A DNA stretch of 20,745 nucleotides, taken from a virus. The position numbers and the translations under genes are program-made. The notes below the pieces were generated by a model. That model was not told the origin of the DNA. It saw only the letters and a list, made by a program, of their open reading frames with translations, and made no database searches. Position 1 is the stretch's first letter. Every line of letters starts with the position of its first letter. Below are positions 2,639-8,978 of the stretch, piece after piece. The stretch spans positions 1 to 20,745 of the IMG/VR virus record IMGVR_UViG_3300037502_001667. The stretch is one strand, 5' to 3'.

Positions 2639-3301
2639 ATGTTTACACACAAACCTATACCATTCGATGACCTGAAGACGGTGACAATTGACGGAAAGAG
2701 ATTCTATCAAACACCAGAGGGCAACACTTATCCTTCCGTTACCTCAGTCACCGGGCTATACAATAAGAAAGAAATTCTTGAATGGCGTAAGCGTGTAGGC
2801 GAAGCGGAAGCAAATAGAATCTCAACCAAAGCCTCAAGCAGAGGCACCAGAGTGCATAAACTCTGCGAAGACTATCTAAACAATGAACTGAACACGGATC
2901 GATACATGCCAGACTCGGTTGGTATGTTCAAGTCTATTCAGCCAATCATTGACCAATACGTGGATAACATCTACGCAATCGAAGCGCCGCTGTATTCTGA
3001 TCATCTAAAAGTAGCAGGCAGAGTAGACTGTATTGCAGAGTTTGATGGCAAACTCTCTATCATCGACTTCAAGACTTCCAGTAGACAAAAGAGCGAAGAT
3101 AAAATCCAGAACTACTTCATGCAATGTGCGGCATATGCTGTTATGTTTGAAGAGAGAACTGGCATACCAGTACCGAGAATTGCTATCGTCATTGCAGTTG
3201 ACTCGGATCATCCACAAGTGTTTGTCAAAAAGAGAAACGACTACATCGGTATGTTTAAGACTTACCGAGAAATGTTTGACAACCAATCAGTTTTCAGTTA
3301 G
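2639..3301 (+). CDS. PD-(D/E)XK exonuclease, MGME1/RecB-like
   Basis: A 220-residue nuclease of the PD-(D/E)XK superfamily. Visible elements are SSRGTRVHKLCEDYL (residues 67-80, with the conserved RGT..H), E115 in AIEAPLYS, the acid D130 in AGRVDCIAEFDGKL, the D143-F-K145 core of motif III in IIDFKTS, and a Q/Y motif near 162 (QCAAYAVMF). This order matches the phage and mitochondrial MGME1-type single-strand exonucleases often found in T4-like cyanophages. A role in processing DNA ends or degrading host DNA fits. A 51-base gap precedes it, with no clear Shine-Dalgarno site just before the ATG, so the start is likely but not certain. Confidence 0.85.
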   Translation: MFTHKPIPFDDLKTVTIDGKRFYQTPEGNTYPSVTSVTGLYNKKEILEWRKRVGEAEANRISTKASSRGTRVHKLCEDYLNNELNTDRYMPDSVGMFKSIQPIIDQYVDNIYAIEAPLYSDHLKVAGRVDCIAEFDGKLSIIDFKTSSRQKSEDKIQNYFMQCAAYAVMFEERTGIPVPRIAIVIAVDSDHPQVFVKKRNDYIGMFKTYREMFDNQSVFS

Positions 3302-3610: not shown

Positions 3611-3944
3611 TGTTGCTACATTCATCGGCGCTTGTGATCAGCCTAGAAGCGAGAAGAATGCAGAACTGTATAAGCGATTAATCGAAGAAGAATACGGCGA
3701 GTTTGTATTTGCAGAAAAGAGTCACGATGAAGTTGGTGAACTTGATGCATGTATGGATATGATTTGGGTCATTCTCGGCTACTGTCATATGCGTGGATGG
3801 GATGTCAACGGCGCATGGCATGAAGTTGCACGAAGCAATCTAGACAAGATTGATAAAGTTACCGCCAAAGTTGTCAAGCGTGAAGATGGTAAAGTACTAA
3901 AACCTGAGGGATGGAAACCACCAAATTTGACACGATTTGTATAA
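3591..3944 (+). CDS. Second MazG/HisE-type NTP pyrophosphohydrolase-like protein
   Basis: A 117-residue protein starting MSNMYVDVATFIGA. The ATG at 3591 is chosen over an upstream TTG (3576) because AGAGGAAAAGA just upstream is a good ribosome-binding site for it. The NTP-PPase acids are present: E32-E33-E34-x-x-E37 in IEEEYGEF and D52/D56 in LDACMDMIWVILG, followed by SNLDKID, a stretch typical of HisE-like phage proteins. It probably hydrolyses a nucleotide or phosphoribosyl-nucleotide pyrophosphate bond (family-level inference). The stop codon lies inside the late-promoter box that serves the tmRNA gene. Confidence 0.8.
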   Translation: MSNMYVDVATFIGACDQPRSEKNAELYKRLIEEEYGEFVFAEKSHDEVGELDACMDMIWVILGYCHMRGWDVNGAWHEVARSNLDKIDKVTAKVVKREDGKVLKPEGWKPPNLTRFV

Positions 3945-3947
3945 ATA
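3940..3947 (+). promoter_or_regulatory. T4-type late promoter box for the tmRNA gene
   Basis: Exact TATAAATA, the T4 late-promoter consensus read by the gp55/gp33/clamp system. With the box at -13 to -6, transcription would begin at about A3953, just before the acceptor half of the tmRNA. It shares bases with the stop codon of the preceding gene. No other gene starts nearby, so the promoter appears dedicated to the tmRNA. Confidence 0.75.
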
Positions 3948-4015
3948 GTTTTATTGCTGTATGAAGCAAAGAGAAACGGGTTCTGGACGGCGGTTCGATT
4001 CCGCCCAGGTCCACC

Positions 4016-4132
4016 AGTAAACTCTCTGAGTGACTACACTGGAACAACTGAAATACTTGCCAAAGTCGACCAATGCAAGGACCAGCCAGGAAGTAGGGTC
4101 ACCGTGAATTCAAGTATCGCAGAGAGTTTACT
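4016..4132 (+). repeat. Inverted repeat closing the tmRNA intervening segment
   Basis: AGTAAACTCTCTG at 4016-4028 is the perfect inverse of CAGAGAGTTTACT at 4120-4132 (13 pairs). A second inner helix pairs ATACTTG (4053-4059) with CAAGTAT (4111-4117). The helix lies between the encoded CCA and the first acceptor base G4136. It would bring the two tmRNA halves together in the precursor before the roughly 119-base intervening segment is removed. Processing by RNase P at G4136 and by tRNA 3'-end enzymes at CCA is what is known for permuted tmRNAs; it is inferred here. Confidence 0.85.
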
Positions 4133-4222
4133 AATGGGCCTGACAAGGTTTCGACAGGGCAAAGAGTAACAGAGTGGACAGCACGGTAGGCGATGACCGT
4201 AAATCAAGCAAAATCTATAAAC

Positions 4223-4255
4223 GCAAACGATGAAAAGTTCGCATTGGCTGCCTAA
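4223..4255 (+). other. tmRNA proteolysis-tag reading frame
   Basis: GCA AAC GAT GAA AAG TTC GCA TTG GCT GCC TAA encodes ANDEKFALAA. With the alanine carried by the tmRNA itself, the added tag is A-ANDEKFALAA, two residues different from the E. coli tag (encoded ANDENYALAA). The ALAA end is the ClpXP/ClpAP degron. GCA at 4223 is taken as the resume codon by alignment with E. coli, where an A-rich stretch also precedes it. Confidence 0.92.
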
Positions 4256-4264
4256 GTAAAGGCA

Positions 4265-4313
4265 CCTAGGGTTTCGGTGGGGTTCCTAGTAACAGAATAC
4301 CCCACCATTTTTT
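4265..4313 (+). terminator. Pseudoknot-like 3' structure and terminator of the tmRNA
   Basis: Two interleaved helices are possible: CTAGG (4266-4270) with CCTAG (4285-4289), and GGTGGGG (4276-4282) with CCCCACC (4300-4306). This is the order of an H-type pseudoknot, as found downstream of the tag in tmRNAs. The second helix is followed by ATTTTTT (4307-4313), so it can also act as an intrinsic terminator. Both roles may be true at different times. Confidence 0.75.
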
Positions 4314-4335
4314 AACACACACAAAGGAGACACAC

Positions 4336-4548
4336 ATGTCCAAAACACCATATGAAATCAGACTTGAACTATTGAAAATGGCTCAGGATCAAGTGACACA
4401 ACGATATTATCAGAAGATGGATAATCTTCGACATAATTCGTCCATTAAAAACGATCCATTGCCACTCAATGAAGTACCTCAGTTTCCATCATCACAAGAA
4501 ATTCTTCTAGAAGCAGAAGTGCTGAAGACTTTCGTGGACAAACAATAA
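4336..4548 (+). CDS. Small conserved T4-like phage protein (70 aa)
   Basis: Begins MSKTPYEIRLELLKMAQDQV, a pattern I recall from short conserved proteins of T4-like cyanophages. The start is fixed by AAGGAGA at 4324-4330, five bases before the ATG. The protein is mostly helical with a Pro-rich middle (DPLPLNEVPQFPSS) and no cysteine, signal or membrane segment. It sits alone between two terminators, so it either needs its own promoter (none seen) or is reached by readthrough from the tmRNA. The function is unknown. Confidence 0.75.
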   Translation: MSKTPYEIRLELLKMAQDQVTQRYYQKMDNLRHNSSIKNDPLPLNEVPQFPSSQEILLEAEVLKTFVDKQ

Positions 4549-4555
4549 CCTGAGG

Positions 4556-4580
4556 GGTGGGGCGAAAGCCCCATCTTTTT
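4556..4580 (+). terminator. Intrinsic terminator with GAAA tetraloop
   Basis: TGGGGC (4558-4563), loop GAAA, GCCCCA (4568-4573), then TCTTTTT. The stem can be extended by a G-U and a G-C pair. It follows the 70-aa gene directly and lies immediately before the methyltransferase start, so that trio depends on readthrough or an unseen promoter. Confidence 0.85.
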
Positions 4581-4583
4581 ATT

Positions 4584-5078
4584 ATGCAATCTAAAGAAGA
4601 ACTTGAACTGTGGTATCGCAATCCCGATCCATGGAACTACAAAAACAATCCAGCCGATCTGAAGCGTAAAGCAGAACTGATCATGGCTCTCAACGAAGTG
4701 AATTCGTTCAACGAATATGAACGTGCGCTAGATATTGGCGCAGGAGAAGGCTTTGTAACGACTAGCCTTCCAGCAAAAGAAATTCACGCAATCGAAATCT
4801 CAGACATAGCCGCATCTAGGCTACCATCAAATGTTCAGCGTGTCATGGCACCGTGCGTCAAGAAATATGACTTGGTGATGACAACTGGAACACTATACAA
4901 ACAATACGACCACAAGCAAATCAAAGACTGGATCGAATCCTGTTCGAACAGGCACATTCTTGTTGCAGGCATCAGAGACTGGCTCATTGATTACAAGTTT
5001 GGTAAGGTCATCTTCGAAAAAGAATTCGCATATAGAGAATTCCAACAAAGAGTAATCATCTATGAAATTAGCACATAA
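4584..5078 (+). CDS. SAM-dependent methyltransferase, NodS-like
   Basis: A 164-residue class I methyltransferase. Motif I (SAM-binding) is LDIGAGEG at residues 49-56, and E71 in AIEIS is placed to bind the SAM ribose. The opening DPWNYKNNPADLKRKAE resembles the N-terminus of NodS-type N-methyltransferases and sugar-linked methyltransferases. The ATG at 4584 is chosen because the frame upstream runs through the terminator hairpin. No Shine-Dalgarno site is visible, so translation may be weak or the start atypical. It overlaps the deacetylase gene by 17 bases. Methylation of a sugar or surface glycan is the likely role from context, but a small-molecule or nucleic-acid target is not excluded. 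Confidence 0.8.
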   Translation: MQSKEELELWYRNPDPWNYKNNPADLKRKAELIMALNEVNSFNEYERALDIGAGEGFVTTSLPAKEIHAIEISDIAASRLPSNVQRVMAPCVKKYDLVMTTGTLYKQYDHKQIKDWIESCSNRHILVAGIRDWLIDYKFGKVIFEKEFAYREFQQRVIIYEIST

Positions 5079-5580
5079 CATCGGCAACTATCATCATAGC
5101 AACTACAACACTAGAGAGCAGATTTTAAGTTGTCAGGAACCGATTGGCTTCGATGGCATCTATCTGAACGTATATGAAAATCAAGATGTTCTTGTTGGCA
5201 AGTCTGGCATTATGTTTGTTATGGGCGATTTCTTTGGGAAGGACAATCGTTTCGACCTCGCACATGTGCCCGCATTGGAGCACTATTGCACCCTTGAGCA
5301 AGTCCAAGAATTGTGCGACAAATACGATTTTGAACTCGGTTGGCACACCTGGTCGCACAGAGACTTGACAAAACTATCAAAAGATGAGATAATGTATGAA
5401 GTGACTGCACCGTTTCCATGTAAGCATTTTGCGTACCCATACGGTACGTTCAATCAACTGGTAATCGATTGCGTCAAAGCCGCAGGATATGAGAAGGGTT
5501 GGAGTGTTACTCAAGGTAGCAGAAACCCTAACGATCCGGACTACAACTTCAAGATATACAGAGATTATATTGGATGGTAA
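5062..5580 (+). CDS. Polysaccharide deacetylase, NodB-homology (CE4) family
   Basis: A 172-residue CE4-type protein. Motif 2 is H95-TWS-H99 in ELGWHTWSHRDLTKLS, giving the two metal-binding histidines. Motif 3 is AYPYGTF at 124-130. The segment FVMGDFFGKDNRFD (52-65) matches the usual strand and loop after motif 1. Motif 1, normally (T/S)FDDG, reads GFDGIYLNVYEN (29-40), as if one of the two aspartates were missing. That may impair or alter the metal site. The family removes acetyl groups from N-acetylglucosamine or similar sugars in glycans or peptidoglycan. It overlaps both neighbours and is translationally coupled to them. Confidence 0.8.
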   Translation: MKLAHNIGNYHHSNYNTREQILSCQEPIGFDGIYLNVYENQDVLVGKSGIMFVMGDFFGKDNRFDLAHVPALEHYCTLEQVQELCDKYDFELGWHTWSHRDLTKLSKDEIMYEVTAPFPCKHFAYPYGTFNQLVIDCVKAAGYEKGWSVTQGSRNPNDPDYNFKIYRDYIGW

Positions 5581-6188
5581 CCGTTGTCATTGCATCATTT
5601 CATTATGGACACTTAGCCGCACATGCGATAGAAAGCATACTCTGCCAGACTAGAAAGGCAGACAAGATTCTATTCGTTGACGATGCGGCTGGAGACTGTC
5701 AGCACCTTAGAAAACTATATCCTGAGGTAGAGTTTACATTCCGTGACAAAAATCTCGGTGTCGTAGACAACTTTCAGGATATGCTTTTCAAAGTCAATAC
5801 ACCAAAAGTACTGTTTCTAGGCGCAGATAACTGGCTCAGAGCAGACGCACTAGAACTTCTACTAGCACAAGATACAGATATTGTCACATACGATATCATG
5901 GTAACAGGTACTTTGCGTGAAAATATCGCTAGAACGTACCCCACAAGACAGCGGCAAGGCGACTTATACTGGGATCGTACAGGATCGTGGCATGGGTCGA
6001 TGCTATATAATACTACACTTGCCAAAAAAGTTGGTGGGTATGCAAAAGGCACCTCAGTCCATAACACGGAAGAGGACATGGTTCTATGGCAAAGAATGCT
6101 AAAGAAAGGTGCCACAGTTTCTCATGTACCACAAGGACTTCTCTACTACAGGAGACACAGAGAGAACTTTTTCAAATATAAAACCTGA
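5574..6188 (+). CDS. Family 2 glycosyltransferase (short, soluble)
   Basis: A 204-residue GT-A fold protein. It opens VTVVIASFHYG, has FVDDAAGD at 34-41 (nucleotide-binding acids), FRDKNLGVVDNF at 56-67, FLGADNW at 81-87 as the DxD-like metal site, WHGSMLYN near 139-146, and EED (166-168) for the putative catalytic base. No membrane segment is visible, unlike the much longer NodC or chitin synthases. It overlaps the deacetylase by 7 bases, so methyltransferase, deacetylase and glycosyltransferase form one coupled unit. It may transfer a sugar to host surface glycan, a phage structural protein or a small molecule; the acceptor is unknown. Confidence 0.85.
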   Translation: MVTVVIASFHYGHLAAHAIESILCQTRKADKILFVDDAAGDCQHLRKLYPEVEFTFRDKNLGVVDNFQDMLFKVNTPKVLFLGADNWLRADALELLLAQDTDIVTYDIMVTGTLRENIARTYPTRQRQGDLYWDRTGSWHGSMLYNTTLAKKVGGYAKGTSVHNTEEDMVLWQRMLKKGATVSHVPQGLLYYRRHRENFFKYKT

Positions 6189-6202
6189 AAGGAGGGTAAA
6201 AC

Positions 6203-6775
6203 ATGTTTAAGTACATCTTTTATGGGGTGTTCTTTAGTGTTTTCGTTTCCTTGTCTATCATGACAATGGCTTCACTAGCCAGCGACATTGATATTCACGG
6301 AAAACTACCAATCAAGGCAACTTACAACGACCTATCTAAAGACGCCAAAAGGCAGGTCACATGTCTTGCAGAAAACATTTACTTTGAAGCGGCTACAGAG
6401 CCATACAAAGGAAAGAAAGCAGTAGCATTCGTTACAATCAATCGACTACAAACTGGCAACTACGCAAACGATATTTGTGGCGTAGTGTATCAAAAGACTG
6501 GCGGCACTTGCCAATTCTCTTGGTACTGTGATAAGACTGTTACCGCTAAACGCTTGACAATCAAGCATACTACATTGTATAATGAGATATTGGAGTTAGC
6601 AACCTATGTGTTTCTTAACTTCGATAAACTAGAGGACGTAACTAAAGGTTCAACGTATTACCATGCAGTCTACGTCAACCCACAATGGAGACTACAGAAA
6701 GTACATCAAATTGGAAACCACATCTTCTACCGATCTAGAAAAGACAACATTGACAGAGGAAAGAGTATCATCTAA
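6203..6775 (+). CDS. SleB-type cell-wall hydrolase (probable endolysin)
   Basis: A 190-residue protein with an N-terminal hydrophobic segment (residues 4-25, IFYGVFFSVFVSLSIMTMAS) ending near SLASD, either a signal peptide or a signal-anchor-release sequence. The rest matches Hydrolase_2/SleB: CLAENIYFEAATEPYKGKKAVAF with the family's catalytic Glu region, TINR, then CQFSWYCD, then TYYHAVYVNPQW and IGNHIFYR. SleB enzymes are lytic transglycosylases or amidases on peptidoglycan. AAAGGAGGG at 6188-6196 is a strong ribosome-binding site. It is the likeliest lysis enzyme in this window; cleavage of the leader could not be judged. Confidence 0.85.
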   Translation: MFKYIFYGVFFSVFVSLSIMTMASLASDIDIHGKLPIKATYNDLSKDAKRQVTCLAENIYFEAATEPYKGKKAVAFVTINRLQTGNYANDICGVVYQKTGGTCQFSWYCDKTVTAKRLTIKHTTLYNEILELATYVFLNFDKLEDVTKGSTYYHAVYVNPQWRLQKVHQIGNHIFYRSRKDNIDRGKSII

Positions 6776-6776
6776 T

Positions 6777-7016
6777 ATGAACGAAAACGGCGTAAAAATT
6801 TTCATCACCATCGCAGTCTGTGCTACGATTATCATCACAACAGCAATCATTGGTGGATACTACTACAACATGAATGACAGAAATCGTATGTCTCAGAACA
6901 TTGAGAATGCAATCAACAAAGGCGTTGATCCTATCTCTGTCAAATGTGCCTATGAAACTACGGTGAATAGCACTTGTATTGCTTACGCCGCTACTGCGGC
7001 CGCAAAGGCAAAATGA
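6777..7016 (+). CDS. Small single-pass membrane protein (79 aa)
   Basis: The ATG at 6777 follows directly after the SleB stop. An earlier in-frame start lies entirely within SleB and is not used here. Residues 6-28 (VKIFITIAVCATIIITTAIIGGY) form one membrane helix, followed by a polar tail with two cysteines (KCAYETTVNSTCIAYA) and an Ala-rich end. I recall similar small proteins in T4-like phages, with no known function. Its position next to the endolysin makes a holin or spanin-like lysis role possible, but there is no lipobox or second protein to support that. Confidence 0.7.
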   Translation: MNENGVKIFITIAVCATIIITTAIIGGYYYNMNDRNRMSQNIENAINKGVDPISVKCAYETTVNSTCIAYAATAAAKAK

Positions 7017-7264
7017 ATAGCAAAGTCAACTCATTAAAGATACTCACACAAAAAGAATTCGAATCTGCTATCAAAGAAATTATGAAGGTAAAGTCACCAA
7101 TCACTATGATTGATGCAATCCTTCATTTTTGTGAACAGACAAATGTTGAGGTTGAAACTGCCGCATCTCTCATCTCTAACAAGATGAAAGGTGTGATAGA
7201 AAACGAAGCCATCAAACAAAATCTGATTCACAATAATCGTGCGAGATTGCCCATCGGAGAATAA
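7013..7264 (+). CDS. 33: Late-promoter transcription accessory protein, gp33-like
   Basis: An 83-residue protein starting MNSKVNSLKILTQKEFE. The ATG at 7013 forms an ATGA overlap with the preceding gene. The core TMIDAILHFCEQTNVEVETAASLISNKMKG is the pattern of gp33-type co-activators of T4-like phages, followed by a short basic and hydrophobic tail (RARLPIGE). In T4, gp33 binds the RNA polymerase beta flap and links it to the sliding clamp so that late promoters fire. The presence of TATAAATA boxes in this window fits. The assignment is from memory of the family pattern and could be off. Confidence 0.65.
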   Translation: MNSKVNSLKILTQKEFESAIKEIMKVKSPITMIDAILHFCEQTNVEVETAASLISNKMKGVIENEAIKQNLIHNNRARLPIGE

Positions 7265-8935: not shown

Positions 8936-8953
8936 TCTAACGCTAGAAATAAG

Positions 8954-8978
8954 AAACCCACCGAAAGGTGGGTTTTTT
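8954..8978 (+). terminator. Terminator between convergent operons
   Basis: AAACCCACC (8954-8962), loop GAAA, GGTGGGTTT (8967-8975), with the T run to 8978. It is a good intrinsic terminator for gene 32 transcripts. Read from the other strand the stem is followed by TTTCTTATTTC, so it may also end the tape-measure operon, though less cleanly. It fills most of the 44-base gap between the two stop codons. Confidence 0.88.

What the first reader, a model, noticed from the sequence alone, without database searches (positions are those of the whole stretch)
3953..4313. Phage-encoded circularly permuted tmRNA
All key tmRNA parts are readable: a T-arm with encoded CCA, an acceptor stem with the G3-U70 alanine pair formed between segments 120 bases apart, a D-arm-like region, a PK1-like stem and a tag frame ANDEKFALAA. 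The halves are in reversed order. Permuted tmRNA is known from alphaproteobacteria, some cyanobacteria and some betaproteobacteria. Phage copies are, as far as I know, rare. A phage copy would supply ribosome rescue while host mRNAs are being destroyed, or redirect tagged proteins.
Basis: partly seen in the sequence, partly recalled or inferred. Interest (0 to 1): 0.9.

Follow-up and report, generated by a model that had tools for sequence, protein, structure and literature searches.

The report
Two-piece tmRNA of a T4-like phage
This virus of bacteria carries its own gene for a ribosome-rescue RNA, written with its halves in reversed order so that it would work as two RNA pieces; it is real and well preserved, but such genes were already known in related phages.

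Summary
Window 3955-4313 (+) is a complete, apparently functional circularly permuted (two-piece) tmRNA gene: ARAGORN calls it permuted with tag ANDEKFALAA, and Rfam scores 137 bits (tmRNA_permuted) and 124.6 bits (beta_tmRNA). The contig is a T4-like phage. Phage permuted tmRNA is already published (Melnitz, 2022), there at the same locus, so this is a new member of a known kind, not a rarity.

Comparison adds: (1) all 121 tmRNAs that ARAGORN found in related phage loci are permuted, and lie downstream of the exonuclease on the same strand wherever both are present. (2) The discarded spacer is constrained: its ends form a covarying helix (8.3 of 9 pairs; 5.7 shuffled), followed by UGAU/UAAU. 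(3) The 3' hairpin covaries. (4) A T4 late-promoter box, TATAAATA, lies at 3940-3947; within one mismatch it is enriched there in relatives (40% against 4%). (5) No SmpB in 20 phage records.

Most likely function: late-infection trans-translation using host SmpB, AlaRS and proteases. Expression, processing and activity are untested; direction of phage-bacterium transfer is unresolved.

The parts
3940..3947 (+). T4-type late promoter box TATAAATA
   Evidence: Exact match; 3 in the whole window on both strands, 0.67 expected; enriched at this place in relatives
3955..4016 (+). tmRNA acceptor piece (3' half of the tRNA-like domain), ending in encoded CCA 4014-4016
   Evidence: Rfam RF04321/RF01850 alignment; 5' end approximate
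3989..4005 (+). T arm, stem 3989-3993/4001-4005
   Evidence: 5/5 pairs
4006..4012 (+). 3' strand of the acceptor stem (U4010 = position 70)
   Evidence: 7/7 pairs with 4136-4142
4017..4135 (+). Spacer (intervening sequence) absent from mature RNA; arms 4017-4028 and 4120-4131 pair; UAAU 4132-4135 precedes the mature 5' end
   Evidence: Fold and inverted repeat; covariation in relatives
4136..4313 (+). tmRNA coding piece, starting with the 5' strand of the acceptor stem 4136-4142 (G4138 = position 3)
   Evidence: Rfam and parser; 3' end approximate
4223..4255 (+). Tag reading frame ANDEKFALAA plus TAA
   Evidence: ARAGORN; codons
4276..4306 (+). 3' hairpin GGTGGGGT/ACCCCACC with loop TCCTAGTAACAGAAT; the loop bases 4285-4289 could pair with 4266-4270 to make a pseudoknot (pairing read by eye)
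   Evidence: Inverted repeat; compensatory arms in relatives
2639..3301 (+). PD-(D/E)XK exonuclease upstream, syntenic anchor of the locus
   Evidence: phrog_298, Pfam PDDEXK_1, synteny

Best explanation
A circularly permuted tmRNA gene of a T4-like phage. Transcription most likely starts just downstream of a T4-type late promoter. The precursor folds as one long helix: acceptor stem, then an internal loop with the CCA end opposite AAU, then the spacer helix. Host tRNA-processing enzymes (RNase P at U4135/G4136; tRNase Z or other 3' nucleases at A4016) remove the spacer, leaving an acceptor piece and a coding piece held together by the acceptor stem. Host AlaRS charges it through G3-U70. With host SmpB and EF-Tu it enters ribosomes stalled on cut or nonstop mRNAs, adds (A)ANDEKFALAA, frees the ribosome and marks the product for host proteases. 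This keeps ribosomes available late in infection. Shown: anatomy, conservation, covariation, locus, promoter motif, no SmpB in the phage records searched. Inferred: transcription timing, processing, charging, tagging, benefit.
For: ARAGORN and Rfam. G3-U70 in 120 of 121 parsed phage copies, nearly all with full acceptor and T-stem pairing, over 11 different acceptor stems. Spacer helix covariation, 8.34/9 pairs against 5.70 +- 0.12 shuffled, with TGAT in 68 and TAAT in 6 of 79 before the mature 5' end. The 3' hairpin keeps its pairing with 19 different arms. The tag is coded in 16 synonymous ways (but this set was chosen by tag). Same-strand order phoH - exonuclease - tmRNA in about 90 relatives and in Melnitz. 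TATAAATA at 3940 and its enrichment in relatives. A two-piece tmRNA has been shown to function in Caulobacter (Keiler 2000, as cited in PMC3985003).
Against: No RNA, processing or infection data. The window is a 20.7-kb fragment, so a phage SmpB elsewhere in this genome is not excluded. The late box is exact in only 12 of 89 distinct relatives; several others show sigma-70-like TTGACA...TATAAT sites, so timing may differ between phages. Buchholz et al. assigned an early promoter to the Melnitz gene. The host and its own tmRNA are unknown.
Confidence: 0.82

Rival explanations
1. It is a processed two-piece tmRNA, but its main benefit is tagging rather than rescue: phage-chosen tags send selected host or phage fragments to proteolysis, recycling amino acids or shaping the proteome.
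For: Tags differ strongly between phages at the same locus (ALAA, RLAA, LMAA, LLAA and SLAA endings among 33 exonuclease-selected copies; RIAA, AIAA and RYA endings in Stenotrophomonas and Xanthomonas phages). Buchholz et al. proposed tagging of host proteins.
Against: The window tag ANDEKFALAA is an ordinary betaproteobacterial-type tag, also found in bacterial one-piece tmRNAs, so nothing marks it as redirected.
Confidence: 0.1
2. The phage RNA competes with the host tmRNA for SmpB or AlaRS and inhibits host trans-translation, as reported for the shortened tmRNA-like RNA of mycobacteriophage DS6A.
For: The DS6A RNA inhibits endogenous tmRNA when expressed in E. coli (PMC11915505). No phage SmpB was found, so the phage RNA would draw on the host's.
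Against: DS6A lacks the tag frame; here tag, resume region, both hairpins and full acceptor are kept, which a mere competitor would not need.
Confidence: 0.04
3. A recently captured bacterial gene or a decaying passenger without benefit to the phage.
For: Very similar acceptor and tag in Cupriavidus copies; tmRNA genes are common sites of gene exchange.
Against: Same locus in many phages, compensatory changes in three helices, intact tag, no decay.
Confidence: 0.03

Closest known systems
ssrA of Methylophilales phage Melnitz EXVC044M (MZ577097; PMC9004378)
   Same: Permuted two-piece tmRNA in a T4-like aquatic phage at the same locus: PhoH - PD-(D/E)XK nuclease - small ORFs - tmRNA - gp33 - gp59 - gp32-like; TATAAATA at the same distance, -77; the spacer ends in UGAU.
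   Different: Melnitz is alpha-type (RF01849, 106.7 bits; tag ANDNYVPVDYALAA; 142-nt spacer) and is followed by a glutamine riboswitch RF01739. The window gene is beta-type, tag ANDEKFALAA, without such a riboswitch. Several cassette genes separate it from gp33.
Betaproteobacterial permuted tmRNA (Rfam RF01850; e.g. Cupriavidus L221, L212)
   Same: Full-length model match (124.6 bits); GGTTTCGACAGGG motif; acceptor GGGCCTG/CAGGTCC and tag ANDEKFALAA are identical to the extra Cupriavidus copies.
   Different: Spacer of 119 nt against about 30 nt in bacteria (median 32); carried by a phage; lower score than Cupriavidus genes (248-283 bits).
Permuted tmRNAs of Stenotrophomonas and Xanthomonas phages (Marzo, QDWS359, Rb1, X1, BUCTxx99)
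   Same: Permuted form; four of the five have a spacer helix and TGAT; T-arm segment 76-81% identical.
   Different: Other phage lineages, other loci (tRNA genes or ribonucleotide reductase near by), other tags; BUCTxx99 has almost no spacer.

Membership tests
Permuted (two-piece) tmRNA, RF04321 | Covariance-model match over the whole model above the gathering score | tested here: met
   137 bits against 47, model 1-213, not truncated
Permuted (two-piece) tmRNA, RF04321 | Acceptor piece encoded before the coding piece, with a spacer between | tested here: met
   3955-4016, spacer 4017-4135, coding piece from 4136
Permuted (two-piece) tmRNA, RF04321 | Alanine identity: G3-U70 in a 7-bp acceptor stem, discriminator A | tested here: met
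   G4138-U4010, 7/7 pairs, A4013
Permuted (two-piece) tmRNA, RF04321 | Open tag frame ending in a protease-type tail | tested here: met
   ANDEKFALAA stop
Permuted (two-piece) tmRNA, RF04321 | Precursor cut into two pieces that stay paired | not testable with these tools
   No RNA data; covariation of the spacer helix only suggests selected processing
Permuted (two-piece) tmRNA, RF04321 | Acts with SmpB | tested here: inconclusive
   No SmpB gene in 20 related phage records; host SmpB is presumed; the window is a fragment
Betaproteobacterial subtype, RF01850 | Best-scoring clade model | tested here: met
   beta_tmRNA 124.6 bits (cut-off 84) was kept as best of its clan; lower overlapping matches of the clan were dropped
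T4-like phage | T4 replication and structural genes in the contig | tested here: met
   gp32, gp59, gp33, gp53, T4 baseplate, tail tube, DNA end protector, head closure

The most novel reading that the evidence does not exclude
Permuted tmRNA is an old fixed gene of T4-like phages, and phages were the vehicle that spread the permuted form between bacterial lineages (alpha- and betaproteobacteria, and the extra dispersed copies in Cupriavidus). In the tree of 140 permuted tmRNAs the bacterial groups branch among phage copies, but one bacterial clade is not rejected (p-AU 0.63), nor one phage clade (p-AU 0.235), nor extra plus housekeeping Cupriavidus copies as one clade (p-AU 0.55). With 148 columns the data cannot decide.
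Probability: 0.12. Interest if true: 0.75.

Novelty: new member of a known kind. Interest (0 to 1): 0.42.

Why it matters
A phage that brings its own ribosome-rescue RNA, in a form that needs precise processing by host enzymes, is a natural test of how far lytic phages depend on trans-translation. The comparison adds testable points that I did not find in the papers read: a fixed locus in T4-like phages, a late-type promoter motif, a spacer whose end helix and UGAU are under selection, and tags that vary at one syntenic position. It also suggests that the early-promoter reading of the Melnitz gene should be checked by RNA sequencing.

Tried and rejected
(1) Phage origin of the permuted form: tree and AU tests do not decide. 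(2) The ORF just downstream (4336-4548) as gp33: no match to the gp33 family and no real hit on Melnitz gp33; the gp33 of the window lies in 6974-7264. (3) Phage SmpB: none in 20 records. (4) Glutamine riboswitch as in Melnitz: none. (5) A ribozyme or other Rfam RNA in the spacer: none with E up to 5; the spacer shares no 9-mer with those of the other parsed tmRNAs. (6) A sigma-70 promoter just before the gene: none found by consensus scan. (8) Nearest cultured phage by tmRNA DNA: only short T-arm matches. (9) Cyanobacterial permuted tmRNAs could not be sampled. (10) My first tmRNA parser missed 81 of 175 copies through too strict motifs and was replaced. (11) The fold of the whole precursor alone is only mildly stabler than shuffles (z -1.96), so fold energy was not used as evidence.

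Full report
WHAT IS THERE. ARAGORN finds one tmRNA in the window, of the permuted kind, at 3924-4346 (+), tag ANDEKFALAA. Against Rfam, 3955-4255 matches the whole of tmRNA_permuted (137 bits, cut-off 47) and 3913-4314 the whole of beta_tmRNA (124.6 bits, cut-off 84). Reading the sequence and a rule-based parser give the anatomy: T stem 3989-3993/4001-4005; acceptor 4136-4142 with 4006-4012, all seven pairs, including G4138-U4010 (G3-U70); A4013 and CCA 4014-4016; spacer 4017-4135 (119 nt); tag 4223-4255; hairpin 4276-4306.

WHOSE GENOME. The window is a whole 20,745-base virus record, probably a fragment of a genome. It carries PhoH, a PD-(D/E)XK exonuclease, gp33, gp59, gp32, DNA end protector, head closure, tail tube, baseplate and gp53 homologues: a T4-like phage, host unknown.

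CONSERVED LOCUS. I fetched 80 viral contigs by the exonuclease and another set by the tag DNA. ARAGORN found 123 tmRNAs, two of them the window and its own sub-locus L001, and every one is permuted. It does report one-piece genes in bacterial loci of the same session, so this is not a blind spot. Where exonuclease and a parsed tmRNA are both present, the tmRNA lies downstream on the same strand, mostly within 0.4-2.8 kb, with phoH further upstream. Melnitz has the same order. Among exonuclease-selected loci with at least 3 kb downstream, 29 of 58 have a tmRNA by ARAGORN, and Rfam added permuted tmRNAs in 2 of 10 ARAGORN-negative loci that I rescanned. The gene is therefore common but not universal, as Buchholz et al. 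also wrote (17 of 47 Melnitz-like contigs).

SELECTION ON THE SPACER AND ON THE 3' HAIRPIN. The spacer should be absent from the mature RNA, yet its ends pair. In the window 12 perfect pairs (13 with A4016) extend the acceptor stem. Over 79 distinct pairs of spacer arms in phages, 8.34 of 9 positions pair on average, against 5.70 +- 0.12 when the 3' arms are shuffled among sequences (highest of 1000 shuffles 6.04); all nine positions use several pair types; the four bases before the mature 5' end are TGAT in 68 and TAAT in 6. Relatedness inflates such a contrast, but with 67 distinct 5' arms and compensatory pair types chance is not a reasonable account. Bacterial permuted tmRNAs show a weaker form of the same helix (7.27 against 5.0), with shorter spacers (median 32 against 82 nt; the bacterial set holds two doubtful parses, L237 and L246). 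I infer that the helix presents the two cleavage sites to host tRNA-processing enzymes; that is not shown. The 3' hairpin also keeps its pairing with 19 different 5' arms around a nearly invariant loop.

EXPRESSION. An exact T4 late box TATAAATA lies at 3940-3947. The window has only three such boxes on both strands, and the other two (7923, 17998) also lie just before T4-type genes, gp32-like and a baseplate tail-tube-cap gene (genes). Across 89 distinct phage loci the best 8-mer 60-100 nt before the CCA end has at most one mismatch in 40%, against 4.2% in control stretches upstream (the binomial value 3e-26 ignores relatedness). Melnitz has the exact box at the same distance. Other relatives show TTGACA...TATAAT-like sequence instead (by eye), so timing may vary. 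Buchholz et al. placed the Melnitz gene under an early (BPROM sigma-70) promoter; RNA data are needed.

PARTNERS AND TAG. No SmpB gene was found in 20 phage records, six of them deposited phage genomes, so host SmpB is presumed. Tags vary widely at the same locus, and cultured Stenotrophomonas and Xanthomonas phages carry permuted tmRNAs with further tags. The window's tag is an ordinary one that bacteria also use.

ORIGIN. A tree of 140 permuted tmRNAs puts the window with phage copies bearing the same tag, Melnitz with the alphaproteobacteria, and bacterial groups among phage groups. AU tests reject neither one bacterial clade nor one phage clade. Direction of transfer is unresolved.

COMPARISON WITH WHAT IS KNOWN. 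Membership in the permuted tmRNA family is met on every feature that can be tested by sequence; processing and charging are not testable here, and the SmpB partner is inconclusive. Two-piece phage tmRNAs were published in 2022 (PMC9004378), and virus genomes were included in the 2025 tmRNA database survey (PMC11915505). This is a new member of a known kind, at a locus already seen in Melnitz, with a different (beta-type) tmRNA and no riboswitch. The added value lies in the comparative facts above.

Noticed in passing
L203, L208, L211-L214, L217, L223-L226 (Cupriavidus); compare L221: Cupriavidus pinatubonensis HN-2 has a housekeeping permuted tmRNA (ANDERFALAA) plus four extra permuted copies (ANDEKFALAA, encoded CCA) on three replicons, two of them on one plasmid; other Cupriavidus genomes and plasmids carry similar ones. 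The shared unit is about 400 bp, and in at least two copies an H-NS family gene lies just upstream.
   Followed up: partly
L286-L290: Cultured Stenotrophomonas and Xanthomonas phages of several lineages, including QDWS359 of the Mesyanzhinovviridae, carry permuted tmRNAs; several are unannotated in the deposited records, and one (X1) has a tag ending in RYA.
   Followed up: partly
L040, L041, L068, L290: Phage permuted tmRNAs with almost no spacer (about 4-12 nt), too short for the spacer helix, hence perhaps processed differently.
   Followed up: no
L027, L053: Phage permuted tmRNAs with the unusual tag GAYNAPLALAA and CTT in place of the encoded CCA.
   Followed up: no
window 4336-4548: A 70-aa ORF of unknown function with relatives in 76 of the fetched phage loci, lying downstream of the tmRNA on the same strand wherever both are present.
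   Followed up: partly
window 4557-6775: Cassette between the tmRNA and gp33: weak methyltransferase match, polysaccharide deacetylase, glycosyltransferase family 2 and cell-wall hydrolase; not between tmRNA and gp33 in Melnitz.
   Followed up: no
window 8953-8976: Perfect hairpin with T run between the gp32-like gene and the convergent 2054-aa ORF, likely a two-way terminator; it gives a weak sroH match.
   Followed up: no
L237: A bacterial permuted tmRNA with a very long predicted tag (28 aa) and a spacer of only a few bases.
   Followed up: no
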